Source of the DNA: Pyrinomonadaceae bacterium
Lineage (GTDB): Bacteria; Acidobacteriota; Blastocatellia; Pyrinomonadales; Pyrinomonadaceae
Direction: 5' to 3'
DNA: 64,000 nucleotides
Assembly: GCA_021228405.1 (NCBI GenBank)
Contig: JAJQRF010000003.1
Coordinates: 275,581 to 339,580 of the forward strand
Program-made: the position numbers and the translations under genes
Notes under the pieces: generated by a model
What the model was told of the DNA's origin: nothing
Database searches by the model: none
Seen by the model: the letters and a program-made list of their open reading frames with translations, nothing else
Shown: positions 6,820 through 31,035 of the stretch, piece after piece
Position numbering within the stretch: the stretch's first letter is position 1
Layout: each line of letters begins with the position of its first letter

Positions 6820-6822
6820 TTA

Positions 6823-12083: not shown

Positions 12084-12287
12084 ATTGAGTTCTCTCAAAA
12101 AAGACATGCTTTCATTTTTGGAAAGATCAGCGTATCGAAAGCAGATTTTGAGCCTGCCATAAGTTTATTTAACAAAGAAAATGCGTATTCCGCTAACTAT
12201 CGTCTGAACCTCGCTAATATGTCAATGAAAGTAGTAACAAAGGCAGTATGTCATTCAATAAAGATATATCCATACGTTATTTTTTAA
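12084..12287 (+). pseudogene. Possible decayed coding remnant
   Basis: A 67-codon open stretch without a plausible start whose composition looks coding: KADFEPAISLFNKENAYSAN is followed by YRLNLANMSMK. No family is recognised. It abuts and partly overlaps the DUF932-like remnant on the other strand, so this junction seems to be a patchwork of gene fragments. Evidence for coding is only the amino-acid texture. Confidence 0.3.
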
Positions 12288-12520
12288 ATGGTAAGACATG
12301 GTGAGAAAGTTGCTCAGTTTTGCCTCCTCCTCAAATTGCTGAATGGATTTGAGCTTTTTAAACTTCACTTCCTAGCGGTAGCTCTCCAAATAACTCGGTC
12401 ACATAGATTTTCTAAAACCAACATATATAGATTTCGACTAGTGAATGATGGCTTAAATAGATTTTCCCATGAAACAGCTTATTTCAATAATTTTAGTTGT
12501 TTTATGAAAAATGTATTTAT
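12255..12520 (-). pseudogene. 3' remnant of a DUF932-like gene
   Basis: Read on the minus strand, this stretch aligns with the C-terminal ~80 residues of the intact gene at 25047-26141. VSWENLFKPSF matches VHREYFIKPSF; LENL matches LENAF; then, after a frame change, KFKKLKSIQQFEEEAKL matches TFKKLKPVQQFEAAARL and NFL matches KFL. At least one in-frame stop and one frameshift break it, and everything upstream is missing. It lies just beyond the 3' end of the DGQHR gene and marks the left edge of the AT-rich defence-like cassette; the intact relative marks the right edge. Confidence 0.7.
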
Positions 12521-12549
12521 TATTTTTATATGTTGAGTTGTCAAGTATT

Positions 12550-13788
12550 TCACTTGATACCTACAAGCACATTTTCTATATCCTCAGTATCAGGAGCAAC
12601 TTTTGAAGCATAGCCCTCTTTTAATTTTTTCAGTTCATCTTCTGTTAAAATTGTTCCATCGTATAAATAAAGCAACAGAAGTTGAATTATTATAACTGAT
12701 TCCGTAAGCATTCTTGTTTCTTTCGGATTCCATGCAACAAAGTGCCAAGGCTTACTGTCTAAATTGAAGTTAACTGTATTAAATTGTTCAAATATTTCAG
12801 TAAATTTTTGTCCTTTTCGATTATGAATAATTAAACTTGCCTTAACTAAAGGTAAAAAGCCAATTGGACGGAAAACTAAATTTCCTCCGGTTTTGCTGTC
12901 TCGAAAAGGCTGTGCCGGGTTTTCCGTTGCAACGACAAAATCAGAAATAAAATTCAACTGTGTCTTAAATGCATTCCAATAATTAATGCAAAATTCTTGA
13001 AAAGAGTTTATTTCTTTTTGATCAGGACGAAATTTTAAATACTTTTCTCGACTTTTTGGGGTAATTTTTTTATTAAAAAGAGTTTCGTAAAAAGAATTAA
13101 ACAACTCTATATTTGCTTGATACAAAGTTATTATTGAAGTAATTGCATCTTTGTTATTAGACGGGATTGCTTTTTGTTTTGTAACTACTACTCTCTTGCC
13201 TGTAAATAAATCATACTCCTCAAGCAAATATCTTGTGGTAATTGCTACTATATCGTCTTCATCTAAAGCTATTATGTCATCTAATTTTACAGGTTTTGCA
13301 TATCTATTCAAAGTTGTAAATAATCTTCTTGTTCTCCGCATTCCCGACTCATCATTTTTATGTCCAATAAATATTGTGGCAATTCTTTGGTGTTTAAGTT
13401 CCGGTTTCTCCTTTAAAGCTGCTTTTATTCCTTCGACTCTATGCTGACCGTCAACCGGAAATATTTTATGGACTTTTGAGAATTCTAAAATTCCCATTTG
13501 ATAGGTTTCTCCTCCCTCATATTTAAATTCTATTTCTCTCCAATCTGGATATTCATCATATACGGCTAAAACAAGTGAGTTGAAAAATAGTTCGGACTGA
13601 TTTATTACATATTCTTTAATGCCAATGTAGTTTGTACTAATACTCCGCTGGATTAAATCTCGTAAACTTTTAGATTTATGCAATTCATTATCAACCTTGG
13701 AAACAAAATTGCCTACCTCTTCAAAGGTGAGTGTTGTTACATAATATGTCCAATCCCCCATGTGTGCTCTCAATGCTGGTATTCTCAT
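12550..13788 (-). CDS. DGQHR-domain (DndB/DpdB-like) protein
   Basis: A 412-residue cytoplasmic protein with the diagnostic DGQHR motif at residues 113-117, inside FPVDGQHRVEGI, followed by FTTLNRYAKPV near 155-165. The DGQHR family includes DndB, the regulator encoded with DNA phosphorothioation genes, and related proteins in 7-deazaguanine DNA-modification clusters. The ParB-like fold suggests DNA binding or nucleotide hydrolysis. The start overlaps the stop of the upstream GIY-YIG-like gene by 4 nt, so the two are translationally coupled. GC is very low, as across the cassette. Assignment to the DndB group rather than another DGQHR branch is inference from the DndC-like gene six kilobases away. 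Confidence 0.8.
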   Translation of the reverse strand: MRIPALRAHMGDWTYYVTTLTFEEVGNFVSKVDNELHKSKSLRDLIQRSISTNYIGIKEYVINQSELFFNSLVLAVYDEYPDWREIEFKYEGGETYQMGILEFSKVHKIFPVDGQHRVEGIKAALKEKPELKHQRIATIFIGHKNDESGMRRTRRLFTTLNRYAKPVKLDDIIALDEDDIVAITTRYLLEEYDLFTGKRVVVTKQKAIPSNNKDAITSIITLYQANIELFNSFYETLFNKKITPKSREKYLKFRPDQKEINSFQEFCINYWNAFKTQLNFISDFVVATENPAQPFRDSKTGGNLVFRPIGFLPLVKASLIIHNRKGQKFTEIFEQFNTVNFNLDSKPWHFVAWNPKETRMLTESVIIIQLLLLYLYDGTILTEDELKKLKEGYASKVAPDTEDIENVLVGIK

Positions 13789-14315
13789 AATTCAAAAGCC
13801 TTTACTGCATCCCGAATTTCTTTTTCTGGAATTTCGTCGTTAAAAGGTAGTAAAAGGGAGTTAATTAGTTTTTTCTCAAAATCAATTATTTGATCGTTAT
13901 CATCCAATGGCATAAAGCTCAAATATAGTTCATTTGCCCAGTAATGAAACAAGGTTGAAATTTTAGGACGTTCATCTTCTCTTGAGAATTTAAGAAAATA
14001 CTCTTTACATCTTTTCTTAAGATTTTGGTTTTCAGTAAATTGCGCTCTTCCTATATATGCAGGAAATTCTGTTCTGCCAGGAATTACCGGACAATTTATG
14101 GAAAACATATAAAGTCCACCTTTATTATTTGGGAGAAGATTTATATCTGCATTAAAGTCTGTAGCATCTTCATTAAGATACTTTATTGTTTTCCAGTTTG
14201 CCAAACTCAAATTTATTGCCGACAAATCATATTTTTCCCACATCAATGAGTATAATTTGAATGGGACAGTTCTAAGTTTAACCTCTTCTCCTAAATTAAA
14301 TGCAATATTTAACAT
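13785..14315 (-). CDS. GIY-YIG-like nuclease domain protein
   Basis: A 176-residue protein. KGGLYMF at 65-71 and FPAYIGRA at 84-91 match the two strands that name the GIY-YIG fold (GLY and YIG here). LKKRCKEYF supplies the arginine on the following helix, and an EKKLINSLLLPFN segment near 146-158 supplies the expected Glu and Asn. All the key residues therefore seem present, although the spacing should be checked against a profile. It overlaps the DGQHR gene by 4 nt, so the pair probably acts together. It starts divergently from the PLD-like gene with about 265 bases of AT-rich promoter sequence between. A role in cleaving foreign or unmodified DNA is inference. Confidence 0.65.
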   Translation of the reverse strand: MLNIAFNLGEEVKLRTVPFKLYSLMWEKYDLSAINLSLANWKTIKYLNEDATDFNADINLLPNNKGGLYMFSINCPVIPGRTEFPAYIGRAQFTENQNLKKRCKEYFLKFSREDERPKISTLFHYWANELYLSFMPLDDNDQIIDFEKKLINSLLLPFNDEIPEKEIRDAVKAFEL

Positions 14316-14580
14316 AAAACTTTTCTTATTATTCTTATTAATATGAACTTTTATTTATATCTAATAAAATCTTCACGTCTTCGTTATGCCGCAAGCAAAA
14401 CCCCTAAATGTTCCATCATAACCAATTATAAGTTCATTATTTTGCTAACTAAACGCGAAAGATTAGTTCTAGTAATCGCAACTAGGGATCATTCAGTTTG
14501 CAAATTCACAGCGCATTTAACTTACTCCAGTACAATTGAATGTTATAATTATTTTCGTCAATTATTTCAATGATAAACCT

Positions 14581-15516
14581 ATGCAAATTTTAGGAACTGA
14601 TGATTACAGAATTACCTTAGAATCATATTTATCAAATAGTAACGAAAGTGTTTTTATTGTTTCTGCATATATTACCAAAGAAGGAATTGATTGGATATTA
14701 TCTAGATTACCCCCTCTCATTGGTTGTAATGTTCTAACTCGATGGGACTGCTCCGATTTAGTTTCAGGAGCCTCAGATATAGAAGTTTATAATAGACTCA
14801 AATCCTATGGTCATAGTTTATATATTCTTCCTGATCTCCACGCAAAAGCTGTTCTCATTGATAAATCAAAATTATTTATAGGTAGTGCAAATATTACTAA
14901 CTCAGGATTAAGCCTTATTACTCAGGGAAATCGTGAAATCGGAACGATTCTTGATCCGTCAATTCAAGACATTGCATGTATTGAATCTTTATTTTTGGAA
15001 AGTATTCTAATTGACGATATATTATTCCAAGATATTTTAGAAGAATTAAACAGATTCGCAATAGATAAAAACAGAAGTTATCCAAAATGGTCTGAATCTT
15101 TACTTAAAAAATTTCAAAAACCGCCCGAAAAATTATGGGTTGTTGAAATGCTTTGGTGCTCAACTCCAAAAGATTTGAATTTTGGTGATTTAACTCCTAA
15201 TATAAAGCACGATATTAGATTACTAGGGTTGAAAAAGACAGACACACTATCCAATGAATTGCTCAAAGAAAAATTAATTGCAAGTAAATGTTGGCTATGG
15301 TTGGAAAACAGAATTAGAAATACTCCAAAAAAAGAATTTTATTTTGGTGAACTTTCTGCCGAATTACATAATTCATTTCTTGATGACCCAAATCCTTATA
15401 GAAAAGATGTTAAAGGGTTGTTGAGTAATTTATTAAATTGGGTAGGAATTCTTTTAAGTGACATAGTCGTGGTTGATAGACCACAGCATTCTCAAAGAAT
15501 AAAATTAATTAGCTAA
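14581..15516 (+). CDS. Phospholipase-D-like nuclease
   Basis: A 311-residue protein with one HKD motif: H87, K89 and D94 in LHAKAVLIDKSKLFIGSANI. This is the NucA/BfiI/DrmC-like arrangement, in which a dimer forms the active site. The C-terminal ~150 residues have no recognised domain. An upstream in-frame ATG at 14536 would add 15 residues, but the ATG at 14581 begins where the family-like sequence starts. It is the only plus-strand gene in the cassette and converges on the GHKL ATPase with one base between stops. PLD-type nucleases recur in DNA-modification-linked defence loci; that role is inferred here. Confidence 0.75.
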   Translation: MQILGTDDYRITLESYLSNSNESVFIVSAYITKEGIDWILSRLPPLIGCNVLTRWDCSDLVSGASDIEVYNRLKSYGHSLYILPDLHAKAVLIDKSKLFIGSANITNSGLSLITQGNREIGTILDPSIQDIACIESLFLESILIDDILFQDILEELNRFAIDKNRSYPKWSESLLKKFQKPPEKLWVVEMLWCSTPKDLNFGDLTPNIKHDIRLLGLKKTDTLSNELLKEKLIASKCWLWLENRIRNTPKKEFYFGELSAELHNSFLDDPNPYRKDVKGLLSNLLNWVGILLSDIVVVDRPQHSQRIKLIS

Positions 15517-15517
15517 C

Positions 15518-17314
15518 CTACTTTTCATTCATAAAATCTTCTGCGATTCTACCCCATTTCCAACGTGCATCTCTGGCATTATTTTTTTGAGTACCATCTA
15601 ATGCTTCATCCTCATATCTTGCCCAAGCCATCAATAAAAGTTTCAAACCATCCTTTGCTCGACTAAACTTCCCTCTTATCTCTTCTAATTTCATTTCTTC
15701 AGCTTCCTCATCAAGCACTTCTATAAGATGAGAGTATGCTGGATGATTAACGTTTAAAGAAACAATCATTGACCCACCTCGGGATTGAACGTCAAAAAAA
15801 GCGGGGCTATTTACATTCGCTTTAGAAAAAGTATATTTGTATCCTTCATCAACAGTCTTTGCGGCAAGTTCCTCAGCGGTAGTTTTAGCCACTCCCTCAT
15901 TTATCAGCCCTTTTGCAATTTCATCCTTTCTTTCTTCCGGCGGATTTTTTTCTTGAGTGTCACTTTCTCCAGCGTGTCCTTCTTCTTGTCTTTGCCGGGT
16001 AACATCAGTAGCTTTTTTCTCAGGTTGGGTGCTGTATCTCTTTTTTGACCTTATACCTTCTGTTTGAGTTTTTATTAACGCCTTCATCTGTAAGATGTTT
16101 TTACGAATATGATTAGCAATTTGCCAAAGAGGAAGACGGGGGTCTTCATCAGCAGAAAGTATATCCTCAGTTATCTCTAAACTTTGGTTTTCATCTAACA
16201 AAGATTCAAGGTCAGTTTTAGCTAATTCTGAAAAATTTCTTGCCGATTGCTTATTGTTTGTAACCCCAAATAATTCATCTAGAGCTGGACCGAAACTAAC
16301 CTCAACCCCCCACCACCTATCGGTAGTATCATACTGATTTGACCAAGTCGTATCTAAGTCCAATTCTCTTTCAGCCCGAACGATTGAAACTCCAAGATTT
16401 TTTGCTGCGTGCTTACCATGAGGTAAGTCGCCTGGATTTCTCGTTCCAAATCCAACTCTTGCTTTCTCTTTTGCAATTGAAAATGTAATTTTGACTGGAT
16501 GATCTTTACCTCGAAACCTAATCTGCTTATGCATCTGCTCACCCCAATTTTGAAACATTTCTTCGCTATTAAATGGAGTTGGACAAGAAGTGGTCTTCAT
16601 CAAATAACACGGATCATTTGGTTCTGCATATTTGTTTATGGAAATCTTTTTAGTATTTCCGTCAAAGGATGACAATCGAATAATTATTCTGCTATCACTA
16701 AGAAAATATCTATACATTCGTCCTATTAATAACTCAGAGTTATCAATAATTGTTTGTGCTGTCCGCCATAAACACTTATCAATCTTTGACCAAACGACTA
16801 AAGTTCCCGATTTTGAAAAAGAATCACCTACTTGTAACCATTTATCGGGGGCATTTTTATTAATCGGCTGCGGAACTTCTATTAAACTTCCAGATTCAAT
16901 TTCATCGAGGTCTAAATAGCTATAAAGAGCATCCTCAACACCATCTTGCCAAGACCAAACGTCAACTCTCCGACACTGAGAAATAGAAGAACTTGGAAGA
17001 CCCATGCCAAATTTACCGATTCCTGATTGTTCCGCAGGACTGAGGTGAGTGCCGTTACCAAATTGCAGTGCACGTCTTAAATCACCAATGTTCATTCCTG
17101 TTCCATTATCCAAAACTGCAATCTCTTTAATTCTTGATCGCTTCCGCTCATGGAGCATTTCTATTTCTTCACAACACAATAATTCTATTTGTTTTGCTTT
17201 GGCTTGAATAGCATTGTCCATTAGTTCGGCTATCGCATACGCCGCATTTTTATACCCGTTATCTCGCATTGCTTTGACAACCAAATGCGTCGGTACAATG
17301 TCGTGTCTCGTCAT
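15518..17314 (-). CDS. GHKL/MORC-like ATPase
   Basis: A 598-residue cytoplasmic protein with an HSP90/MutL-type ATP-binding domain at its N-terminus: N-box ELMDNA at 30-35, G1 box DNGTGM at 69-74, and G2 box GIGKFGMG at 98-105. A charged linker with many Glu/Lys (about 415-470) leads to a C-terminal region without a recognised domain. ATP-driven dimer clamping on DNA is typical of MORC/MutL relatives. Its ATG directly abuts the TAA of the helicase gene (TAAATG), so the two are coupled and probably act as a pair. No histidine-kinase phosphoacceptor domain is seen. Confidence 0.8.
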   Translation of the reverse strand: MTRHDIVPTHLVVKAMRDNGYKNAAYAIAELMDNAIQAKAKQIELLCCEEIEMLHERKRSRIKEIAVLDNGTGMNIGDLRRALQFGNGTHLSPAEQSGIGKFGMGLPSSSISQCRRVDVWSWQDGVEDALYSYLDLDEIESGSLIEVPQPINKNAPDKWLQVGDSFSKSGTLVVWSKIDKCLWRTAQTIIDNSELLIGRMYRYFLSDSRIIIRLSSFDGNTKKISINKYAEPNDPCYLMKTTSCPTPFNSEEMFQNWGEQMHKQIRFRGKDHPVKITFSIAKEKARVGFGTRNPGDLPHGKHAAKNLGVSIVRAERELDLDTTWSNQYDTTDRWWGVEVSFGPALDELFGVTNNKQSARNFSELAKTDLESLLDENQSLEITEDILSADEDPRLPLWQIANHIRKNILQMKALIKTQTEGIRSKKRYSTQPEKKATDVTRQRQEEGHAGESDTQEKNPPEERKDEIAKGLINEGVAKTTAEELAAKTVDEGYKYTFSKANVNSPAFFDVQSRGGSMIVSLNVNHPAYSHLIEVLDEEAEEMKLEEIRGKFSRAKDGLKLLLMAWARYEDEALDGTQKNNARDARWKWGRIAEDFMNEK

Positions 17315-18925
17315 TTAATCCCTCCAAACATCTTCCCAATTTGTAAAAGAATCTGAAATATCATTAAACCCAGGGAGTTCTTGATCTATTACCGTAATAA
17401 TTTCTGCAGTTTCATTTCCTCCAGCTTTTATTCCTCGTATTGCTCTTCCAATCATTTGGCTATACAAAACCAGAGAACTAGTTGGTCGAGCAATTACTGC
17501 TGCACTTGTTTTAGGAGCATCGAATCCAGTCGTTAAAACCCCGAAATTACAAAGAATTCTAGTCTCGTCTGATACTTGCTTATACTCTTCGATAAACTTC
17601 ATTCGAGCATATGAGTCAGTTTGTGATGTAATTGAATAAGCTTTTAGTTTTCTTGCTCTTAAAACAGACGCAATAGCATCTGAATGTGCAACTGTTGTAG
17701 CAAAAATCAGAATTCTTTTGTGTATCTTTGATAATTCTTCAGTCGCGTGAATAATTTTTAGATTACGTTTTTCATCATCTGCTAATTTATTTAATACGCT
17801 ATTAGGTATTTCAAAGCCTTCTTGAATTTCTTTTATGTCTTTTTCGCTTAAATTAATTCCCCCTTCATGCATGAGAGACTTAAATACTGGTCTGGCTAAA
17901 TAACCTTCACTAACCAAATAATCAACAGGGGTGTCATACCCTTTTATAGCTAATGTAACTTTCTGTTTTTTAAAAAATTTAGCTAGTTCTTCATCTGCTT
18001 TAATATCATTCCAAGTTCTGCCTGGGGTAGCAGTCAATCCTAAAAGTTTTGCGTCAGTGTTATGCACAAGCAAAATTTCAAGCAACATTTGGTAGGTTTC
18101 GGCAATCGCTGAATGAGCTTCATCAATAACCACTAACTTTGCTTTACTACCAAGTTTGATAATTATACTCTGTTTAGTTTTTACTGAACTATAGAGTTTT
18201 GAGAGTCCAGCCACTACAAAACCATCTTGAATTTCTTCAATATTTAGCTCTCGGTTTCCCCAAAACCTGTGCAGTTTAATCTCACGATCACCTAAATTTT
18301 GCCATGCTCTCTCAAATTCAGTTGCCGCTTGTTCACATAGTTCTTCACTTTGAGCTAACCAAATAACTATTGTTGGCTCATTTGATCGGAAATGGTTAGC
18401 AATAATATTCATAGCGGTTCGAGTTTTTCCTGAACCCGTTGGCATATGTAAAATAGTTCTGTAAGGTTTTTTTATTAGTTTTCGATAGACCTCATTAGCC
18501 GCAATACGCTGATGTGAAAATAATGAATAATTACAAAACACTGTATCTAAAGCTATTTTTTGTTCTATTTCTTCTGTTAGTGGAATACTTAACTCAAAAA
18601 AATCAAATAAGGCTTTCTCTTTTACTGATCCTTTTTGAATTGAGAGATTTTTTAACTTTTCATAAACATTTCCCTCAGCCTTAATCTTTAAAATATTAGC
18701 AAGTGTCCTAGCTTCTTTCAGCTTTAATAAGTCAAAAAGAGATGCTCGGTATTTTTTTGTTCGTAAAAGTGTTGGAGGTTTTTTAAGTTCCAATAATATT
18801 TTTTGTAAATTAGAAGGTGTCGCCAGCTTTGCATCAAGAAGTGTCAGTAGCTTAAGTACTGTAGGATTAAGCAAACTTTGCAATATCTCGTCGTCTGCTC
18901 GGGATATTAAGTCTTTAATTTGCAT
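17315..18925 (-). CDS. SF2 DEAD/DEAH helicase
   Basis: A 536-residue superfamily 2 helicase. Walker A is MPTGSGKTRT at 161-170, motif II is DEAH at 268-271, motif III is TATPGR, and the second RecA lobe ends in QMIGRAIRG with the arginine finger, preceded by LTTGFDAP. The type resembles type III restriction/UvrB-like translocases. An N-terminal extension of about 130 helical residues precedes the Q-motif region (SHQRIAANEV). It is followed without a gap by the GHKL ATPase. The 260-base AT-rich gap upstream, towards the DndC-like gene, may hold a separate promoter. DNA translocation is expected; the substrate is unknown. Confidence 0.85.
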   Translation of the reverse strand: MQIKDLISRADDEILQSLLNPTVLKLLTLLDAKLATPSNLQKILLELKKPPTLLRTKKYRASLFDLLKLKEARTLANILKIKAEGNVYEKLKNLSIQKGSVKEKALFDFFELSIPLTEEIEQKIALDTVFCNYSLFSHQRIAANEVYRKLIKKPYRTILHMPTGSGKTRTAMNIIANHFRSNEPTIVIWLAQSEELCEQAATEFERAWQNLGDREIKLHRFWGNRELNIEEIQDGFVVAGLSKLYSSVKTKQSIIIKLGSKAKLVVIDEAHSAIAETYQMLLEILLVHNTDAKLLGLTATPGRTWNDIKADEELAKFFKKQKVTLAIKGYDTPVDYLVSEGYLARPVFKSLMHEGGINLSEKDIKEIQEGFEIPNSVLNKLADDEKRNLKIIHATEELSKIHKRILIFATTVAHSDAIASVLRARKLKAYSITSQTDSYARMKFIEEYKQVSDETRILCNFGVLTTGFDAPKTSAAVIARPTSSLVLYSQMIGRAIRGIKAGGNETAEIITVIDQELPGFNDISDSFTNWEDVWRD

Positions 18926-19185
18926 ATATTATATAAAGATTACTTTATAAAATAAGGACTTCTAAAATCCTATCATTTATGAATTTTCTCAATATTTATA
19001 TAAGACATTAGATTTGTCTTTAAGTGCATTTTCAGATCATTATTGCGTTGATTATATAAAGGTTTTGTTAATTTATCGTATAGATAAACCATTGCTAAAA
19101 CTACTTATAGTGAAATTATAAAAGTAGTGCAAATTGTATTAACTCCATAAACCATTGTAAACCGAATATGCAAATTTATATGAGT

Positions 19186-20058
19186 TTAAATATGGCAAAT
19201 ATTACATGCTGTATCATCATTTTCCGCATCCAAAACTTCTGCTAAAACCTCTACTAGAGGACGATTTGGCTTTGCTCTTTTTTCCCGACTCATGGCTTTT
19301 TCATGATTCGCTTTTATTTCAGCAATTCGGCTTGGATGAGCAAGGTCTTCCAAGCTTTCACCCTCTGTCCAAGTAAATTTACTTCCAGTTTCATCACCTA
19401 GTTTCTCAAACGATTTAGCTTTCTCATACAATTCAGGGTGGTTTTCGAGTAAACCTATCCACTCAGATTTACGCTGAAAAAAACAAAAATAGCATCCTGA
19501 TCTAGTACGCCATTTATAATAATCAGGCATCCCTACACTACTTTCTTCAAGAATGCGAATAACATCATCACGATCAATACCGTCTTCCTTGAATGGATAA
19601 AGAGGAATAATATTTTCTTTTTTTGAGATATAACCATCTCTGTCTTCATCAGCGCGAATCCCAATATAACTATAAACTAAATCGCTTCCTACATATCTTT
19701 CAAAAGGTTTAATTTTTAGCTGAATTGTACACCAACGCATTCTCGGACTAGGAAGATAATTGCCATGTACTTGTAACCAGTATTGAAACCCTTCTCCATC
19801 TGCAATGGATAATCGCTCGATCTTTTTTCTTAAATAAGCTTCTAATTTATAAAGATATTCGTAAGTTTCTTTAAGTTCTTCCTTTGTATCACAAAAGACA
19901 TATTCCATATCTACATTTTGTATAGGTGTGTTAGCTATTTTTCCTAGTCGCTCCCGCCAGTATTGGCGATTACTCATATAAATAGCTAAGGCAGAGCTGT
20001 CCTTGCCGCCAGAAACACTTAAAATATGTCTTACTTTTTTAGAAACTTGATTACTCAT
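19186..20058 (-). CDS. DndC-like PAPS-reductase-family enzyme
   Basis: A 290-residue member of the PP-loop/PAPS reductase family. The pyrophosphate loop SGGKDS is at 16-21. Cysteines C110 (RWCT), C189 and C192 (GCYFC) and a terminal C285/C288 pair (CNIC) are candidates for an iron-sulfur cluster as in DndC. DndC uses ATP and sulfur delivered by a cysteine desulfurase to thiolate DNA; no desulfurase, DndD or DndE is encoded in this window. It lies 50 nt after the large ATPase and probably shares its operon. The CNIC tail at the extreme C-terminus is unusual. A phosphorothioation role is an inference; other PP-loop adenylation chemistry is possible. Confidence 0.8.
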   Translation of the reverse strand: MSNQVSKKVRHILSVSGGKDSSALAIYMSNRQYWRERLGKIANTPIQNVDMEYVFCDTKEELKETYEYLYKLEAYLRKKIERLSIADGEGFQYWLQVHGNYLPSPRMRWCTIQLKIKPFERYVGSDLVYSYIGIRADEDRDGYISKKENIIPLYPFKEDGIDRDDVIRILEESSVGMPDYYKWRTRSGCYFCFFQRKSEWIGLLENHPELYEKAKSFEKLGDETGSKFTWTEGESLEDLAHPSRIAEIKANHEKAMSREKRAKPNRPLVEVLAEVLDAENDDTACNICHI

Positions 20059-20108
20059 TTATTACCTAACAACTGATTTCGCATAAGTGATAGTATTTCC
20101 AGTATTAT

Positions 20109-23100
20109 TTACTGTGTTTTTATCTGTTGCAAAATCTTCCATGAAAGATTGGCTAACACTATTAATCTTAATTCATAATTCCCATTAAGATTAGCATCTT
20201 CAAATTCTTTTTCTAAAGCAACTTCTAATTTTTCAATTATATTTTTTTCATTTGGCTTAATCGTCAGAACTTTTTCCTGCTCTTCGTCTCCGAATTTCGT
20301 TAAACTTAATCTAATAACTTCACCTATATTTATATTTTTGGAGATTTCTTTTTGTTTCAATTCAAATGCCAAAGATTCAAAATTTACGTAACTTCTAACA
20401 ATTTCTGCCAAATTTATTTCAAAAATGGAAAAATCCTCATCATCCCATGACGCTATCCTTTTATTAACAACTAACTCACCTAAGGACTCTAGCCAACTAC
20501 GAAAATCAGCATTTGGGTCTGTGATTCTTAAAATAAAACTCTTTAACTTAGGAGAAGAAACGTAGTCTGCAATAACTTCTACTTTTTTAGCTAATTCTGC
20601 TCGTCCTTTTTCCCCTAGTTCTTTAATATTGAAGCTGCCAAAAAGCATTGCCTCTAAGTCTCTCAAAAGTTCATCATATATACGCTTTATCTCTGATAAA
20701 CTGTTTAATAATTTTTTACAGAACTCACTTACTTGCGTTTCAGAATAAGCTTGCTTTTCATTAAATTCTTTTAAGCCAAAAGCTTCTGGCAATTGCTTAA
20801 ATATCAATGTATCCGGCTCACGCGCGGAAAACAGTGCATGTCTGACTTTCTGACTTTCAAGAGATAGTCGTCTTGTATTTCGGGTAAATTCGTCCATTTC
20901 CCTTGCGAACTTAACAAGCGGGCGAATTATTGTCAAAATATCAAACTGTTTTTGTTTTGAGGTAACTTCTACAGGCAATAGTTTATTTGCAAGCTCTTCT
21001 ATTACTTGAGAACGAACTCCTTCAATTTTACACAATTGGAGTGAAAAAGTTTCTGGTGACCAATAAAGTTTTTCAAATATAGGCAAATTTAATTTAGGTA
21101 CAAACGAACCATTTTCATACAAAGCCAATTCAGAATCATAATGTAACAATACTGCTCCAAAAAGTGTTGGCAAAACACCTTGTTTTAATCCAAACGGTGG
21201 CTTCTTCAATATTTCAAAGAGTTCTGCAACGGTCAGTCTATTTCTTTCTGTTTTTTGCAAAAACTTCTCAATTTCCTTCCAAACCGATTGAATTCCTTTA
21301 TCCGCATTATAGTTAGGAGGGTAAAATCCATATCTACCATTCTCTTCACGATGAATAGTGGTTTCTTGAAGAAGCGAGAAATATATGCTCAACTGCGGAG
21401 GGTAGCCTTGAATGCCAAGTTGGTATTCGTTTGAGTTCTTAAGCATTGAATCAAACAACGACTTTCGAGCGGAATTTGCTGCCCCAGAAAGATTTCGTCT
21501 ATTAATCAACTCATTCTTTAGAATTGGCGTTTTATAAAAAACTGAATCACAAACTTTTGACAAAAACTCTTGCAAACTTTTTGTGTCCGAAATACCAGTA
21601 TTATCATTTTTCCAAAACCATTCACACTGCTCACCGGATTTCCCACTTTGTAACTGATTAAGCCATTTTTGAACAGATTTTTCGACATAACTTAGTCTAG
21701 CAGTTAGTTCATTCCGAGCTGTTCGATCGTTTTGCAATTCAGGGGTATTTTGACGAACCCAATTCCAACAATCAACAGCATAAACAGCATCATTTAAAGT
21801 TTCTAGGTCTTTTGGTAAAGCAACAATAGTCTGACTATTAGTTTTTATTTCTGCTTTTTTTATTTTATTAACAATTTCATTAAACTCTTCTTGACTATTA
21901 GTAAAAACATAAACAATTTGACCATCCGCCTCGCTAGGAATTTTGCTACAAACCTCCTCAATGTTATTTATATTTGCATAGGCTGTTTCAAAAAAACGTA
22001 AAGTCCCTGTTTGATATGAATGCCTTTTAGCCACAATTGGTTTAAGACTGAAGTTTTTTTCTAATCGCTCATTCAAAGACACACTCGGATCAATTTGCTG
22101 TGTCGCCTGCCGAAAGCGCTCATCTAAATCAATATCGCTTCCTTCCCAAATCGCAAAGGTATCATTGAAATTTCGTTTAATGATGACTGATTTTTTAATA
22201 AGATTTTGAAGAGAATTTTCAATTTCTTTTTCTTCAACTTTGTCGTCACGTAAAGCAAACTTTAGTATTTCATCAGAACTTTTGAGTTTCCCAATATCCC
22301 CTAACAAATTTAATAGACCTATCGTTTTTATTATGCGAAACTCCAATTCCGTAGAATTTATTAAGCGATTTAAGGCCGTATCAATTTCAGCCCACTTTCG
22401 CCCCTGTGACCCAGCATAAAGGGAACTACCCATTGCTGAAATCAAATAGTCGTATAATCTATCCAACTGAATGATTTCCCGATATTCTTTCGTCCATTCA
22501 GCGGTTTCTAAAAAACCTGTTAGCCCAAAATAAGTCTCATTTGAGGTTAAAAATGCAAATAATGAACGTTCATTTTGCCCAAAACGCCTAAATACTGGTC
22601 CAAGCGTGATAGCTACTGTTGGATGTAGTGGTAAACATCCTTTTAATAAGCTAACGGCTATTTCTTTCTTTAGAGATCCACAAATTCCTAATTCAAAAGC
22701 TTCTTGAGCGAGATATTCGCCATACCTTTCAAATTCTTCTACTTCAGAAGTTTTGCCAGACAATTCAAAAGCATCTTTTAATATATGCAAAACTTGTTCA
22801 TTAGGCTCTTGAAAGGGCAAGTCTTCAAAGCGTCCTTGTATTTTTCTCCATTCATCGCGTTCTCGCCGTCCAAGTTTTTCAACATACCGTTCAAATGCTT
22901 GATGAAGAATTGTAATTAAAAACAGATTTTGTTTTGAATTTTTTGTTGCCTCAGCTAATTCTTGTAAAACGAATACATCGCTTTTAGTAGGATGTAGAGC
23001 AACATATTCAAGAAGTTTTCCCAATTCATCAATTACTAACAAAACACCTGTTTTTTCATTTTTGTTAGTAATCAAAACAGAAATTTCATTCAAAATTTCT

Positions 23101-23543
23101 ATTATTTGCCTACCTGTTATCTCTTCTTCTTGTAACGAGCTAACTCTTTTGCTTAATTTTATTGATAGTTTTTTGTTATCTGAGGCTTCGATTGCTTGAA
23201 GTATACCTCGTAAAATAGCTTTTGCTAGCGGCTCCCTAGAACCACTAACTAAAATAGGAAAAAACTTCGGGCTAGAGTTTATATCTGCAAATAAAGTATC
23301 TTCATTTTCATAAAGAGTCTGCCAAAAATTGAAGTCTGCTCCCTTTATTAATTTTTTTAATAAAGATAGTTCTTTTGCTGGTTTTATTCCAAATAGCTTA
23401 GACACGAAAAGTGCAAAAGTCGATTTTCCTGATCCATAAGGACCAGTCAATGTCCAAGCTCTAGAAGGAAAAGGATCTGAGAAAGATTCAACAATTCTTT
23501 TTAAAGATTTCTGAACTGTTGTAGTTAAAACATATCCCTCCAT
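20109..23543 (-). CDS. Very large P-loop ATPase, BrxC/PglY-like in size and layout
   Basis: At least 1144 residues. Walker A is GPYGSGKST at 34-42 and Walker B is LLVIDELGK at 168-176, followed by a LITILHQAFE segment and ERDEWRKIQGRFED; the remainder is long alpha-helical sequence. Size and layout recall the BREX BrxC/PglY ATPases, and proteins of this type occur beside DUF4007 and DndC-like genes. The start is doubtful. The ATG at 23543 has no ribosome site, and coding-like sequence in the same frame (VKSRFGRSV, then LERDFYSETP) continues to about 23660, where GGAGAG at 23668-23663 precedes ATT codons at 23660 and 23657. A non-AUG start overlapping the DUF4007 stop would add about 38 residues. 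Confidence 0.8.
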   Translation of the reverse strand: MEGYVLTTTVQKSLKRIVESFSDPFPSRAWTLTGPYGSGKSTFALFVSKLFGIKPAKELSLLKKLIKGADFNFWQTLYENEDTLFADINSSPKFFPILVSGSREPLAKAILRGILQAIEASDNKKLSIKLSKRVSSLQEEEITGRQIIEILNEISVLITNKNEKTGVLLVIDELGKLLEYVALHPTKSDVFVLQELAEATKNSKQNLFLITILHQAFERYVEKLGRRERDEWRKIQGRFEDLPFQEPNEQVLHILKDAFELSGKTSEVEEFERYGEYLAQEAFELGICGSLKKEIAVSLLKGCLPLHPTVAITLGPVFRRFGQNERSLFAFLTSNETYFGLTGFLETAEWTKEYREIIQLDRLYDYLISAMGSSLYAGSQGRKWAEIDTALNRLINSTELEFRIIKTIGLLNLLGDIGKLKSSDEILKFALRDDKVEEKEIENSLQNLIKKSVIIKRNFNDTFAIWEGSDIDLDERFRQATQQIDPSVSLNERLEKNFSLKPIVAKRHSYQTGTLRFFETAYANINNIEEVCSKIPSEADGQIVYVFTNSQEEFNEIVNKIKKAEIKTNSQTIVALPKDLETLNDAVYAVDCWNWVRQNTPELQNDRTARNELTARLSYVEKSVQKWLNQLQSGKSGEQCEWFWKNDNTGISDTKSLQEFLSKVCDSVFYKTPILKNELINRRNLSGAANSARKSLFDSMLKNSNEYQLGIQGYPPQLSIYFSLLQETTIHREENGRYGFYPPNYNADKGIQSVWKEIEKFLQKTERNRLTVAELFEILKKPPFGLKQGVLPTLFGAVLLHYDSELALYENGSFVPKLNLPIFEKLYWSPETFSLQLCKIEGVRSQVIEELANKLLPVEVTSKQKQFDILTIIRPLVKFAREMDEFTRNTRRLSLESQKVRHALFSAREPDTLIFKQLPEAFGLKEFNEKQAYSETQVSEFCKKLLNSLSEIKRIYDELLRDLEAMLFGSFNIKELGEKGRAELAKKVEVIADYVSSPKLKSFILRITDPNADFRSWLESLGELVVNKRIASWDDEDFSIFEINLAEIVRSYVNFESLAFELKQKEISKNINIGEVIRLSLTKFGDEEQEKVLTIKPNEKNIIEKLEVALEKEFEDANLNGNYELRLIVLANLSWKILQQIKTQ

Positions 23544-23643
23544 CGGAGTTTCCGAATAAAAATCACGCTCTAAATTTACTGAACGACCAAATCGAGATTT
23601 GACGCGAACGATTTGAGATAGCTTGAATGATGAACTTTTAAAA

Positions 23644-24558
23644 CTACTTTTGATAATAATAACTCTCCAACCAATAAGATGAAAAAATTTCCTTTTGCTT
23701 ATAAATTTGTTTTAATCCCGCTGTTTCCCCAAATGAAAAGACTCCCTGACTTAAATCATATATATTCTCTAATCTTTGCATAATTGACTCTTCATCCAGT
23801 TTAAATACTCTTCCCGGGCTTCCCGAATCATAAACAATTTTTTCTATTGCTAATGATTTGTTGTTTTGATAATATTTCTTCCAAAACTCACTTAAGGCAA
23901 ATAAAAAGATTTCTTTTTGCAGAGAGGTTTTTTCTCCTCGCTGAAATTGGAATAGTTTTCCATCTTCAAAATCAGCTACCTCTTCAATAATGCTTATTTC
24001 GGTTAAAGGACAATCAAATGAATCATCAAAAACTGTATTTTTAGATAATTTAGAGTGAACATAAGTTCTGACGCAACAATCTATATCACGTGATAAAGTG
24101 TTTTCAGAAGGTGGTTTTGATCCTCTTTGTTCAAGCCATTTTGTAATTTCATCAGCTATTTGCTTTTTAGTAAATTCAATCGAGTTGAATACATTAAACA
24201 GCCAATACCAAGTTGTACATTGCTCAACATTTGAAGTTATTAACCAGTGTAATAGCCACAATGTAGCAGGATCTTCTAAAAAAGGATCTGATCCGTTTTC
24301 CGTTAATAATAATTTGCCTAAAGGAGTTACCGCATAACCTGATTTAGTACTTGGTACTCCAATTTCTGACTGTATTAAGTTAGTTACAATACACCAGTGT
24401 CTTATTGAATTGACCATATTCTTGCCAACCCCAAGTTCAATCATCGCTCGTTGGGACGAGAATACGTGTGGATTTAAGGCAATGGCATTGACTCCTTTTG
24501 TCAGCCAACCGTAACGAAAGCTAAATGTTTCGTGACCTGAAAAACTTGCAATTTGCAT
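23644..24558 (-). CDS. DUF4007 protein
   Basis: A 304-residue protein whose N-terminus carries the DUF4007 signature: FSGHETFSFRYGWL at residues 5-18, then RAMIELGVGKNMVNSIRHW near 38-56. The family occurs next to PAPS-reductase-like (DndC-like) genes and large ATPases; its biochemical role is unknown to me, and the conserved His/Arg-rich start suggests nucleic-acid contact. It is the first gene of the minus-strand defence-like operon and overlaps the frame of the large ATPase. A 7-bp-arm inverted repeat (AGATATT/AATATCT) at 24597-24617, 39 nt upstream of the ATG, may be an operator. Confidence 0.85.
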   Translation of the reverse strand: MQIASFSGHETFSFRYGWLTKGVNAIALNPHVFSSQRAMIELGVGKNMVNSIRHWCIVTNLIQSEIGVPSTKSGYAVTPLGKLLLTENGSDPFLEDPATLWLLHWLITSNVEQCTTWYWLFNVFNSIEFTKKQIADEITKWLEQRGSKPPSENTLSRDIDCCVRTYVHSKLSKNTVFDDSFDCPLTEISIIEEVADFEDGKLFQFQRGEKTSLQKEIFLFALSEFWKKYYQNNKSLAIEKIVYDSGSPGRVFKLDEESIMQRLENIYDLSQGVFSFGETAGLKQIYKQKEIFSSYWLESYYYQK

Positions 24559-24864
24559 AAATCTTCCTAAATCAAGGATTAACGCGAGTTAAAACGAGAT
24601 ATTTTCGGGGAATATCTAACCTAGAAAGTGAAAATAAATGAGAATTTTATCATATGTAATAATAAATGATAAGTAACCATCAAATAAAAATCAGTCCAAA
24701 ATATAGCGATTCTTGAGTAGATAGAATTTAAAGGTAAAAACACTACTGCAACCGAGAGAGTCTCATATTGAGCAATGAGGTCTTTCCGCTTTGACTTCTT
24801 ACTCTAAATGACTGATTCTTGCTTCATCTTCATTAATATATTATGTATTACACAGCTTTTTCTT
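24559..24864. other. AT-rich upstream region of the defence-like operon
   Basis: About 300 bases without a gene between DUF4007 and the terminator of the mobile-element operon. It must contain the promoter for the minus-strand DUF4007 unit. The inverted repeat at 24597-24617 is the only structure I see. No direct repeat matching the tRNA-Asp 3' end was found here. Confidence 0.5.
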
Positions 24865-24903
24865 AAAAAAGACACACTGGTATCTATTAAAGATCAGTGT
24901 GTC
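24865..24903 (-). terminator. Intrinsic terminator
   Basis: GACACACTG and CAGTGTGTC form perfect 9-bp arms, and on the minus strand the stem is followed by TTTTTT. It lies 14 nt beyond the stop of the 39-residue gene and closes the long minus-strand operon of the mobile element. Confidence 0.7.
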
Positions 24904-24916
24904 AAAATAGCTAAGA

Positions 24917-25036
24917 TTAGCTAAAAGAATGATTAATATTTGATCGTCTGCCGATTAACCAACGTCTGAAACGCGCCAACGCTTCAATGACCGTGGCAAC
25001 AAACGGCGGTATTCCAATCGGTATTATCGTCTCCAT
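24917..25036 (-). CDS. 39-residue hydrophobic/basic peptide
   Basis: A small gene with a perfect ribosome site, AAGGAGGA, 4 nt before its ATG, overlapping the end of nothing and starting 10 nt after the DUF932-like stop. The peptide has a hydrophobic first half (PIGIPPFVATVIEAL) and a strongly basic second half (RFRRWLIGRR), so it could be membrane-associated or amphipathic. It is last in the operon before the terminator. No family is recognised. The strong ribosome site and tight spacing are the main reasons for calling it. Confidence 0.55.
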   Translation of the reverse strand: METIIPIGIPPFVATVIEALARFRRWLIGRRSNINHSFS

Positions 25037-25046
25037 AACGTCCTCC

Positions 25047-26141
25047 TTAAAACGGCGAGATATGCGATGCAAGAAACTTGCCGAGCCTCGCCGCCGCTTC
25101 AAATTGCTGCACGGGTTTGAGCTTTTTGAAGGTGGTCGTAAACGCGTTTTCGAGCGTCCAGAGATTATTCCCCCGAAACTCCTCGAACGACGGTTTGATA
25201 AAGTATTCGCGGTGCACCGAACGAAGCAAGGAAATCGGAAATTTCTGCTCCAGAAATCCCTGATAGATCAGGCTTCGGGCGTTATCAATCGAAAGCAGCG
25301 TGACTTTCTTGCGCCCGATCTGGTCACTCACTTCCCCGATATTGCGCTGAATCCGGTCAACCGCCACCGAGAGCGCGTCCAGCAGATTGAAGTTCTTCGA
25401 GTGCTTGGCGAGCATCGGCTGGAAATCCCCGGTCAGCATTTTGTTCTCGCAGACCAGCACCCGGTAGCCTGCCACCAATCCGACCCGCATTGATTTGTCG
25501 TTGGCATTCCGCAGTCCGATCGCAAACCGCACTCCCGAATACTCAACGTCCAGTTCGACCAGCCCGAACAGTTTCATCCCGTCCGGCGAAACCGCATATT
25601 CTTCTCGCACGACCGACAGCCGGCGAAACGAAAGCGATTGCAGAATCTGGTCGACCAGTTGATGATGCGGGATCGGTTTGAACGTGTCGGTTTCCTCGGG
25701 GAGCGGAAGATGTTTTAACGCGTCACGGTTAATGAGCGTCGTCGAGTTTCCCGCAATCAGAGTTCCGACCTGCCCGTTTCCCGCCGTTGCCGCGACACCG
25801 ACAGGTGCCGCGATCTCGGGGACGCGAATCCCGCCGTTGGTGCCGCCGGTTACGGAAACGGGAATCTGTTCCAGAATCTCGTCTGATACGACGGGGTCAT
25901 CTTCGAGCCGGGCGATGATGTCCTCAAGATCGTCCGGTTCTTCGTCATCGGTGAAATCTTCATTGAAAACATAGTCATCCTCCACGTCTTCGATCCCGAC
26001 CGGATCGACTACGGGCGGTTGCTCGTGTTCGGCACGCTTGCGCGCGACCGCTTCACCGATACAATCGGGGTGATAATTGCCCCCGTTCCACGCGATCTGC
26101 ATGGTCGCTAAAATATGGTTTTTGCATAAATCACAATTCAT
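25047..26141 (-). CDS. DUF932-like phage/plasmid protein with N-terminal zinc finger
   Basis: A 364-residue protein. The N-terminus has a C-x2-C pair (CDLC) and a later H/C pair (HPDC) suggesting a zinc-binding treble-clef or LIM-like knuckle. An acidic linker (about 45-95) follows. The rest matches the DUF932 pattern: FKPIPHHQLVDQIL, then SPDGMKLFGLVEL, GLRNANDKSMR, and GYRVLVCENKML. These proteins are common on phages and plasmids, with no settled function. GGAGGA precedes the ATG. A broken relative of its last 80 residues lies at 12255-12520, on the other side of the defence-like cassette. It sits in a tight operon, 12 nt after the HNH-like gene. Confidence 0.75.
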   Translation of the reverse strand: MNCDLCKNHILATMQIAWNGGNYHPDCIGEAVARKRAEHEQPPVVDPVGIEDVEDDYVFNEDFTDDEEPDDLEDIIARLEDDPVVSDEILEQIPVSVTGGTNGGIRVPEIAAPVGVAATAGNGQVGTLIAGNSTTLINRDALKHLPLPEETDTFKPIPHHQLVDQILQSLSFRRLSVVREEYAVSPDGMKLFGLVELDVEYSGVRFAIGLRNANDKSMRVGLVAGYRVLVCENKMLTGDFQPMLAKHSKNFNLLDALSVAVDRIQRNIGEVSDQIGRKKVTLLSIDNARSLIYQGFLEQKFPISLLRSVHREYFIKPSFEEFRGNNLWTLENAFTTTFKKLKPVQQFEAAARLGKFLASHISPF

Positions 26142-27129: not shown

Positions 27130-28368
27130 TTAGTCGGAAACAGCGGAAGCGGAAGAAGGAGAGCTTACTGATGCGGTATCCGGCGGCAGGGTGACGGCAC
27201 TGAACGGGCTGGAGATTTTCCCGTCGATCATCAGTTTCAAATAGATATGGAAATTGGGCAGATTGGTAAAATCGGATTGTTTGAAGGCGGGCGCGAATTC
27301 CTGCGCGAAGAGTTCGGCATCGACCGTCCCGATCCTGAAAATAATCATTGTTCCGACATTGCCTAAAATGGCATCCTTGATGGACGGCTCTAACTGCGTC
27401 AGGTATTGGTGCGCCAAGACTAACGACAGGCGGTATTTTCTGAGTTCACTAAGCATCAGCACGAGGCTCTGGGTGGTGAAATTGTGAAACTCATCCAAGT
27501 AAAGCGAGTAATCCCGTCTCGCCTCTTCGGGGATATTGGCACGGCTCAGGGCGGCAAGATCAAAGCGCGAAATGAGGAGCGAACCGAGCAGGTTGGAAGT
27601 ATCCTCGCCGACGCTTCCCTTGGCAAGATTGACGAGCAGAATCTTGCCCTCGTCCATCATCTTTCGCAAGGACAGCGGCTTTTCGGGTGCGGTCAGTATT
27701 TTTTGCAATAAAGGATGCGCGAGAAACGCGCCGACCTTGTTCTGAATCGGCGAGATCGCTTCCGCCCGCAGGCGTTCCGGGTATTTATCGAACTCCTTGA
27801 CCCAGAACTCTTTGATCTGGCGGTTTTCAATATGCGGCATGACCTTTTTGCGAAAGTCCTTGTCGGACAGGATTGTTAAGATGTCCGCCAGATTGCTGTC
27901 CGGGTAATCGAGCAGCGAGAGCAAAGAGTTTCGCAGGATGTATTCGAGGCGCGGTCCCCACGAATCGCGCCAGAGATGCTTGAACACCTGAATCAGTCCC
28001 GAACACGCGAGCGGTCGTTTATCCGCCGGGACATTCGCCAACGGGTTGAAACCATACGGCTGATTCGGGTCGGCGACATCGAAGTCAACGAGATCGTCAC
28101 GCCGCGACCACGGGATTTTTGCCTTGACCCTTTTGACCAGATCGCCGTGCGGATCGAGCAGGGCGAAACCGAAGCCCTTGCGTATGTCATCGAGCATGAA
28201 TGATTCGAGCAGCGTCGATTTCCCTGTTCCGGTCTTGCCCATGATGTAAAGATGGGCGCGGCGGTCAGCGCGTTTGATGCCGAAAGCCGTCAGTTTGTCG
28301 CGGAAATTGGTTTTGGCAAAGATCGAGATTTCTGATTGAGTTTTAGAGTTATCTGCGTGGGGAAGCAT
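27130..28368 (-). CDS. HerA/TraD-like DNA-translocating ATPase
   Basis: A 412-residue P-loop ATPase. Walker A is GKTGTGKST near residues 43-51, followed by FALLDPHGDL and YGFNPL, both hallmarks of the VirD4/TraD/HerA group. Walker B is SLYLDEFHNF, and the ensuing LAHQYLTQL is the usual motif after it. No N-terminal transmembrane segments are present, so it is a soluble type, as in many mobile elements that borrow another element's secretion channel. The gene starts 10 nt after the previous stop. It fits a role as coupling protein or DNA pump for transfer of the element; no relaxase is visible in the window. Confidence 0.8.
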   Translation of the reverse strand: MLPHADNSKTQSEISIFAKTNFRDKLTAFGIKRADRRAHLYIMGKTGTGKSTLLESFMLDDIRKGFGFALLDPHGDLVKRVKAKIPWSRRDDLVDFDVADPNQPYGFNPLANVPADKRPLACSGLIQVFKHLWRDSWGPRLEYILRNSLLSLLDYPDSNLADILTILSDKDFRKKVMPHIENRQIKEFWVKEFDKYPERLRAEAISPIQNKVGAFLAHPLLQKILTAPEKPLSLRKMMDEGKILLVNLAKGSVGEDTSNLLGSLLISRFDLAALSRANIPEEARRDYSLYLDEFHNFTTQSLVLMLSELRKYRLSLVLAHQYLTQLEPSIKDAILGNVGTMIIFRIGTVDAELFAQEFAPAFKQSDFTNLPNFHIYLKLMIDGKISSPFSAVTLPPDTASVSSPSSASAVSD

Positions 28369-28377
28369 TTTTAAGTT

Positions 28378-29628: not shown

Positions 29629-29660
29629 CGAATTTACAATTTTATTTGATTACTATTATA

Positions 29661-30644: not shown

Positions 30645-30650
30645 TTGTGT

Positions 30651-31019: not shown

Positions 31020-31035
31020 GAATGAAAATAAAAAA

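What the first reader, a model, noticed from the sequence alone, without database searches (positions are those of the whole stretch)
12550..24558. Candidate new sulfur-linked defence/modification system: DUF4007, giant ATPase, DndC-like enzyme, helicase, GHKL ATPase, PLD, GIY-YIG and DGQHR proteins
Eight genes of uniformly low GC form one block: DUF4007, a >1140-residue ATPase, a DndC-like PP-loop enzyme, an SF2 helicase abutting a GHKL ATPase, then PLD-type and GIY-YIG-type nucleases and a DGQHR (DndB-like) protein. Established: DndC and DndB belong to DNA phosphorothioation, and giant ATPases of this layout to BREX-like systems. The usual dndA, dndD, dndE and dptFGH are not here. Inference: a hybrid of Dnd-like chemistry (DndC using a housekeeping desulfurase), BREX-like ATPase and nuclease effectors.
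Basis: partly seen in the sequence, partly recalled or inferred. Interest (0 to 1): 0.88.

Follow-up and report, generated by a model that had tools for sequence, protein, structure and literature searches.

The report
Ssp DNA-sulfur defence with new effectors
This stretch carries a known kind of bacterial machinery that marks its own DNA with sulfur (SspBCD), coupled to two nuclease-bearing gene sets that recur beside such machinery in many bacteria but that I did not find described as its partners, so they are candidates for the missing cutting half of the system.

Summary
The eight genes are real and intact. DUF4007, giant ATPase and DndC-like enzyme are SspB, SspC and SspD (PADLOC E 4e-101, 0, 4e-112): the core of the known single-strand DNA phosphorothioation (PT) system, not a new chemistry. 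SspA is not in the block. The rest is less known. (1) SF2 helicase, MORC/MutL-like GHKL ATPase and PLD nuclease recur as a cassette: of 80 genome loci with the closest GHKL homologues, 77 have the helicase adjacent, 54 the PLD, 64 SspB/C/D within about 10 kb; all 12 plasmid loci read have Ssp genes. Of 12 distant GHKL relatives read, 2 have Ssp genes and 10 do not. (2) A GIY-YIG nuclease and a DGQHR NTPase, overlapping by 4 nt, form a separate pair found in eight loci, all beside PT genes: SspBCD with or without GHKL, SspFGH settings, and Dnd. Neither SspE nor SspFGH was found in the block. Best reading: a PT restriction-modification island with SspBCD as writer and two modular, previously unassigned effector sets. 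A 2021 survey left 2,211 of 2,678 sspBCD loci without sspE or sspFGH; this cassette is a candidate for part of them. New variant of a known kind. Effector function is inferred.

The parts
23644..24558 (-). SspB (DUF4007), DNA-recognition/nicking subunit of PT modification
   Evidence: PADLOC SspB E 4.3e-101; Pfam DUF4007 302 bits; phmmer 9e-41 to the solved SspB 6juf
20109..23543 (-). SspC, BrxC-related ATPase (G37-x-G39-K40-S41 and D172-E173 intact; named Walker A/B from general knowledge); true start probably slightly upstream
   Evidence: PADLOC SspC 1031.6 bits, BrxC 507 bits; conserved columns; no ATG/GTG/TTG in frame upstream
19186..20058 (-). SspD, DndC-like PP-loop sulfur-transfer enzyme (SGGKDSS; C110, C189/C192, C285/C288)
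   Evidence: PADLOC SspD E 4.2e-112 versus DndC E 1.7e-5; conserved columns
17315..18925 (-). SF2 helicase, cassette gene 1 (GSGKT, DEAH intact)
   Evidence: ResIII E 1.2e-25, Helicase_C E 2.3e-11; best specific models PbeA (PADLOC, no cut-off) and RadD (127.7 bits against cut-off 720); conserved motifs in 77 aligned sequences
15518..17314 (-). MORC/MutL-like GHKL ATPase, cassette gene 2; abuts the helicase stop without a gap (TAAATG)
   Evidence: HATPase_c_3 E 3.8e-21; model pLDDT 86.6, top PDB match MORC2 ATPase with DNA, E 4.3e-12, TM 0.38/0.48; E30, N34, D69, G73, K355 invariant in 38 (ATP-site roles recalled); junction
14581..15516 (+). PLD (HKD) nuclease, cassette gene 3, convergent with the GHKL gene
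   Evidence: PLDc_2 E 2.2e-7; H102, K104, S117, N119, E134 in 62 of 62 aligned, D109 in 48 of 62 and present here (numbering of the 326-aa ORF from TTG 14536); ATG at 14581
13785..14315 (-). GIY-YIG nuclease of the accessory pair
   Evidence: G67-x-Y69, Y87-x-G89, R102, E147 invariant in 5; Foldseek top match UvrC GIY-YIG 1yd6, prob 1.00, E 0.0075, on a low-confidence model
12550..13788 (-). DGQHR (ParB/DndB-like) NTPase of the accessory pair; overlaps the GIY-YIG gene by 4 nt (ATGA)
   Evidence: DGQHR domain E 3.2e-28; DndB equivalog score 64.7 against cut-off 328; D113GQHR117 invariant in 7; overlap read
12090..12362 (.). left edge: decayed copy of the 3' end of the gene at 25047-26141
   Evidence: 65% identity over 281 alignment columns to 24858-25130; 59-nt core at 78%
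24858..25130 (.). right edge: 3' end and downstream of the gene 25047-26141 (weak DUF932 match, E 0.028, below cut-off), which with its copy brackets the block

Best explanation
A mobile PT restriction-modification island. Writer: SspB binds and nicks a target site, SspC (ORC/CDC6-type AAA+ ATPase) powers it, and SspD passes sulfur, taken from a cysteine desulfurase encoded elsewhere, into the DNA backbone; this follows from membership in the Ssp family. Effector 1 (inferred): the helicase moves along or opens unmarked invading DNA, the dimerising GHKL ATPase clamps or loops it, and the PLD nuclease cuts it, with PT marks sparing host DNA. Effector 2 (inferred): the DGQHR NTPase and the GIY-YIG nuclease act as one complex, a two-gene counterpart of DndI and SspE, in which an NTPase domain (DGQQR in DndI) is fused to an HNH nickase. 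Shown: the genes, intact conserved motifs, family identities and recurrent linkage. Inferred: activities, PT dependence, and which DNA is cut.
For: SspBCD identity at very strong scores. Cassette linkage: plasmid loci 12 of 12 with an adjacent helicase and with Ssp genes, 10 of 12 with PLD; genome loci 77, 64 and 54 of 80. Of 52 full cassettes in the genome set, 47 have SspB/C/D linked and 3 more have SspD elsewhere in the genome, one of them interrupted by a stop. Plasmid-wide, SspD matches 65 of 72,556 records, but at least 11 of the 13 records with a near-full GHKL match have it (P 1e-32, not corrected for relatedness). Four of five IMG/VR contigs with the GHKL carry cassette genes and SspBCD. 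In L077 and L105 an SspE-like gene stands in the PLD position. Pair linkage: eight loci, all beside PT genes; the GIY and DGQHR queries hit the same five plasmid records, one being the query's own. Conserved columns intact.
Against: No activity is shown. 16 of 80 genome loci lack SspB/C/D within about 10 kb and 11 of those 16 genomes have no SspD match at E 1e-20; nine of these 11 also lack PLD nearby, so helicase-GHKL pairs exist outside PT. PLD is absent near the GHKL in 26 of 80 genome loci and 2 of 12 plasmid loci. Only the closest 80 of 315 relatives were read. Distances of the two modules correlate weakly (r 0.24-0.36) against 0.68-0.86 within SspBCD and 0.90 for helicase-GHKL, so partners are often exchanged. 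Five of the pair's eight loci were found through GHKL or SspD queries. The GIY-YIG model is low confidence.
Confidence: 0.72

Rival explanations
1. The block is an SspBCD modification module plus unrelated defence genes that merely share a defence island.
For: Weak distance correlation between modules; PLD gene on the opposite strand in the window; helicase-GHKL without an SspD match in 11 of 80 genomes; defence genes cluster in general (recalled).
Against: 64 of 80 and 12 of 12 loci have SspB/C/D near, against 2 of 12 distant GHKL relatives in the phylum draw, where one of the two has the full cassette; of the 70 loci (of 94) that show both SspD and helicase, SspD lies upstream and co-directional in 47 and PLD is convergent with SspD in 10; linked loci come from cyanobacteria, Chloroflexi, proteobacteria, Bacteroidota, actinobacteria and Bacillota by record titles.
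Confidence: 0.18
2. The DGQHR protein is the transcriptional regulator DndB and the GIY-YIG protein a passenger; the pair controls PT levels rather than cutting DNA.
For: Pfam and PADLOC call it DndB-like; DndB has been reported as a negative regulator of Dnd (PMC10853773, passages).
Against: It scores 64.7 against the DndB equivalog cut-off of 328; plasmid pRspNXC14a has this pair and a separate annotated dndB in its dndBCDE operon; the two genes overlap and travel together.
Confidence: 0.3
3. It is a Type 4 BREX system (PT-based, DUF4007 plus BrxC plus BrxP).
For: SspB, SspC and SspD have homologues in Type 4 BREX (PMC12839542, passages); SspC matches BrxC at E 2e-152.
Against: No PglZ or BrxL among the ten ORFs scanned; the SspD match to BrxP is 15.9 bits.
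Confidence: 0.03

Closest known systems
SspABCD-SspE and SspABCD-SspFGH (PT defence)
   Same: Writer SspBCD; in the SspFGH study iscS was used together with sspBCD (PMC8092258, sections 6, 9, 10 read)
   Different: No SspE and no SspFGH found in the block; effectors are helicase-GHKL-PLD and GIY-YIG/DGQHR
PbeABCD / CxC systems (PT- or methylation-linked)
   Same: SF2 helicase and PLD (HKD) nuclease as effector parts (PMC6459918, PMC10853773, passages)
   Different: Pbe fuses PLD to the helicase and uses an ABC ATPase with a DndE cognate; here three separate genes with a MORC-like ATPase
MORC / paraMORC restriction-modification operons (Iyer 2008)
   Same: GHKL+S5 ATPase with SF2 helicase and nuclease, proposed to loop DNA (PMC2292703, abstract and passages)
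   Different: Those were described with DNA methylases; the terms PAPS and DndC do not occur in its main text
SspE and DndI
   Same: NTPase domain of the ParB-like superfamily (DndI motif DGQQR) working with a nuclease (PMC11662687, passages)
   Different: Here two genes, GIY-YIG instead of HNH; the relation is an analogy, homology not shown
Type 4 BREX
   Same: DUF4007, BrxC-like ATPase, PAPS-reductase (PMC12839542, passages)
   Different: PglZ and BrxL not found in the block

Membership tests
Ssp modification core (SspBCD) | SspB, SspC and SspD homologues encoded side by side | tested here: met
   PADLOC E 4e-101, 0, 4e-112; adjacent, same strand
Ssp modification core (SspBCD) | cysteine desulfurase SspA linked, or IscS in trans | tested here: inconclusive
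   none in window 8001-32000 by profile; four class-V matches elsewhere in the genome, best 38%
Ssp modification core (SspBCD) | single-strand PT in genomic DNA | not testable with these tools
   needs LC-MS/MS
SspABCD-SspE | SspE (DUF262-HNH) present | tested here: not met
   no PADLOC SspE hit in the ten ORFs; profile finds none in window 8001-32000
SspABCD-SspFGH | SspF, SspG, SspH present | tested here: not met
   profiles seeded from one Agrobacterium plasmid locus (taken as SspFGH from gene order and its FtsK-type gene, not checked against FF-93) find none in window 8001-32000
Type 4 BREX | PglZ and BrxL | tested here: not met
   none among ten ORFs of the block and its edges; other window ORFs not scanned with PADLOC
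PbeABCD | PLD-helicase fusion and CxC ABC ATPase | tested here: not met
   helicase and PLD are separate genes; no ABC ATPase hit
Dnd | DndB equivalog, DndD, DndE | tested here: not met
   DndB 64.7 bits against cut-off 328; no DndD or DndE hit
DISARM | DrmC with DrmA/DrmB | tested here: not met
   PLD scores 27.7 against DrmC cut-off 133; no DrmA/DrmB hit
MZA | MzaB | tested here: not met
   74.6 bits against cut-off 850
MORC/paraMORC ATPases | GHKL domain with ATP motifs followed by S5 domain | tested here: met
   invariant motifs; fold match to MORC2, SMCHD1 and the MutL ATPase module (TM by target up to 0.62); the S5 part follows from those alignments, not from a separate test
paraMORC2 | ExxxH motif at the end of S5 | tested here: inconclusive
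   no such pair seen by eye among invariant columns; original sequences not compared
GIY-YIG nucleases | GIY..YIG, Arg, Glu on the GIY-YIG fold | tested here: met
   motif columns invariant in 5; top fold match UvrC GIY-YIG, prob 1.00, E 0.0075, on a model of pLDDT 57.7; no family-library hit

The most novel reading that the evidence does not exclude
Helicase-MORC-PLD is a further major restriction partner of SspBCD, the first MORC-type ATPase in PT immunity, with an exchangeable nuclease slot (PLD or SspE); and the GIY-YIG/DGQHR pair is a split, portable PT-sensing nuclease that plugs into Ssp and Dnd alike.
Probability: 0.5. Interest if true: 0.75.

Novelty: new variant of a known kind. Interest (0 to 1): 0.6.

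Why it matters
The 2021 SspFGH paper counted 2,211 of 2,678 sspBCD loci without sspE or sspFGH and raised the possibility of other restriction partners (PMC8092258, section 9). The cassette names testable candidates: at least 11 of the 65 plasmid records with SspD carry its GHKL gene. It would also tie MORC-type ATPases, known from eukaryotic gene silencing, to a DNA backbone mark, and suggest that PT systems are built from interchangeable writer and effector modules.

Tried and rejected
Rejected: a new sulfur chemistry (the core is SspBCD); Type 4 BREX, Pbe, DISARM, MZA and Dnd membership. SspE and PLD as strict alternatives: suggestive only, Fisher P 0.08, and four loci have both. No match of the GHKL in the phage collection at E 1e-10. 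The window GIY protein found nothing in plasmids at E 1e-3; the Roseobacter homologue did better. PMC12458937 (YprA helicases) holds none of the terms MORC, GHKL, Ssp. Literature: ten searches in an open-licence library; in what was listed (most lists were cut) and in the passages opened I saw no paper describing either module as an Ssp partner. That library lacks most subscription papers. The review PMC12707154 (passages) lists dndFGH/sspFGH, sspE and pbeABCD as restriction branches. URI/GIY-YIG nucleases near Dnd genes are mentioned in PMC10853773, so a GIY-YIG link to PT is not wholly new; PMC12421847 (passages) reports Ssp systems mostly without sspE but near other restriction genes.

Limits on counts: 12 of the 13 near-full plasmid GHKL records were read (the thirteenth, H5, is another strain of the species of H4); the best 80 of 315 genome relatives were kept by the tool; loci end at contig edges, so absences may be overstated; SspF/G/H profiles rest on one seed locus; PHROGs was not searched.
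Full report
What is there. The window block 12550-24558 holds eight intact genes, seven on the minus strand in the order SspB, SspC, SspD, helicase, GHKL, GIY-YIG, DGQHR, with the PLD gene on plus between GHKL and GIY-YIG. GC is 33.8% in the block against 47.1% outside 12301-25131. The window lies in a 5.7-Mb draft genome of 20 contigs with one DUF4007 match.

The writer is known. PADLOC gives SspB E 4.3e-101, SspC 1031.6 bits, SspD E 4.2e-112; the same SspD matches DndC only at E 1.7e-5. SspB aligns to the solved SspB 6juf at 9e-41. Conserved columns are intact: SspC G37-x-G39-K40-S41 and D172-E173, SspD SGGKDSS with C110, C189/C192, C285/C288. No SspA profile match lies in window 8001-32000; four class-V aminotransferase matches lie elsewhere in the genome, best 38%, which fits the published use of IscS but does not prove it.

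Cassette 1. The helicase (GSGKT, DEAH), GHKL and PLD genes form a recurrent unit. tblastn of the GHKL in plasmids gave 27 records, 13 over at least 80% of the query; 12 of these 13 were read. A degenerate-pattern scan of genomes found 315 relatives, of which the best 80 were kept. Profiles seeded from the window (SspA, F, G, H from two plasmid loci) annotated every locus. Plasmid loci: adjacent helicase 12 of 12, PLD 10 of 12, any of SspB/C/D 12 of 12, all three 9 of 12. Genome loci: adjacent helicase 77, PLD 54, any of SspB/C/D 64, all three 46 of 80; full cassette 52, of which 47 with Ssp linked and 3 more with SspD elsewhere. Of the 16 loci without Ssp nearby, 5 genomes hold SspD elsewhere and 11 do not; nine of those 11 also lack PLD nearby, some on short contigs.

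Controls. The phylum draw of 297 genomes gave 13 GHKL places, one of them the window; the other 12 were read (L107-L118). L107 has the cassette with SspBCD; L108 has SspBCD with a diverged GHKL near a contig end; the other ten have no SspB/C/D and no helicase of this family. In plasmids SspD matches 65 of 72,556 records, and 11 of the 13 near-full GHKL records are among the 60 listed; hypergeometric P 1e-32, ignoring relatedness. The two not listed, L019 and L026, do show an SspD profile match. Four of five IMG/VR contigs carry cassette genes and SspBCD; the fifth is a short piece. No phage record matched.

The GHKL model (38 sequences, pLDDT 86.6) matches MORC2 with DNA first (E 4.3e-12, TM 0.38 by query and 0.48 by target), with Hsp90, SMCHD1 and MutL close behind; residues that by general knowledge form the ATP site are invariant. 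Iyer et al. 2008 described MORC and paraMORC ATPases with SF2 helicases and nucleases in methylation-type operons and proposed DNA looping (PMC2292703, abstract and passages). The PLD has one HKD set: H and K in 62 of 62, D in 48 of 62 and present here; by general knowledge of the superfamily a single set implies a dimer.

Pair 2. The GIY-YIG and DGQHR genes overlap by 4 nt. Motif residues are invariant in 5 and 7 homologues. The pair occurs in eight loci: window, L020, L100, L108, L136, L156, L157, L164. All lie beside PT genes: SspBCD with the cassette (window, L020, L100), SspBCD with another GHKL (L108), SspBCD with neither cassette nor SspFGH in the 20 kb read (L136), SspFGH settings (L156, L164), and dndBCDE (L157). 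Bias: five of the eight were found through GHKL or SspD queries. Finds made with the pair itself: four Rhizobium plasmids, three of them alike, first hit with the window DGQHR (two of the four read), where GIY and DGQHR queries hit the same five records, the query's own included; and G257 in a draw of 347 genomes, where the profile hit 4 genomes, three already in it. All lie beside PT genes. L157 has an annotated dndB of its own, so there this DGQHR is not the only DndB-like gene. DndI joins a DGQQR NTPase domain to an HNH nickase (PMC11662687, passages); the pair may be a two-gene analogue. That is inference.

Modularity. In 46 loci with all six genes, distances correlate at 0.68-0.86 among SspB, C and D and at 0.90 for helicase-GHKL, but only 0.24-0.36 between writer genes and helicase, GHKL or PLD; PLD correlates at 0.41 with the helicase and 0.28 with GHKL (0 to 16 of 500 shuffles reach the values). 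So these are two co-inherited modules that often change partners. In L077 and L105 an SspE-like gene stands where PLD usually is. SspE by PADLOC also sits between SspD and helicase in L029.

Other settings in the window's phylum. SspD matches 13 of 347 genomes, and all 13 neighbourhoods were read. SspFGH-like genes stand beside it in L139, L140 and weakly in L143, the cassette in the window and L107, the pair in the window, L108 and L136; the other six (L137, L138, L141, L142, L144, L145) show none of these, and L145 shows no SspB or SspC match.

Mobility. The block is bracketed by the 3' end of a gene (25047-26141; weak DUF932 match) and a decayed copy of that end at 12090-12362, 65% identical over 281 columns, as left by insertion or duplication. 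A serine recombinase, a TrwB-like ATPase and an N6/N4 methylase gene lie to the right.

Verdict. A new variant of a known kind: the Ssp writer with two effector modules that my searches did not find described as its partners. Interest 0.6; the mechanism of the effectors remains inference.

Noticed in passing
window 12090-12362 and 24858-25130: The block is bracketed by a gene's 3' end and a decayed copy of it, 65% identical, suggesting an inserted or duplicated island.
   Followed up: partly
window 27130-33506: TrwB-like ATPase, N6/N4 DNA methylase and a serine recombinase lie right of the block; two tRNA genes at 36.5 kb. Possible larger mobile element.
   Followed up: no
L077 2450-6613; L105 9962-14169: An SspE-like gene directly follows GHKL in the position where PLD usually stands.
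   Followed up: partly
L042, L046, L047, L051, L091 (Anaerolineae/Chloroflexi); L039, L048, L052, L054 (cyanobacteria): Helicase-GHKL pairs without PLD nearby and without an SspD match in the genome; perhaps another role.
   Followed up: partly
L018 7854-10157; L016 8013-10346; L015, L028, L041, L043, L093: A protein of about 770 aa with a weak DndB-like domain sits between SspD and the helicase in cyanobacterial loci.
   Followed up: partly
L067, L090: Second GHKL copies (L067 also a second helicase; L090 an SspB-like ORF) beside the first cassette.
   Followed up: no
L021 (Agrobacterium plasmid pAtCFBP7129b): Helicase-GHKL and a three-gene set ending in an FtsK/SpoIIIE protein, taken here as SspFGH, lie side by side near SspD.
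   Followed up: partly
window 23543-23711: SspC has an open frame upstream of its first ATG but no ATG/GTG/TTG there; the true start is unclear.
   Followed up: partly
window 1-7530: FG-GAP and RHS-repeat proteins left of the block.
   Followed up: no
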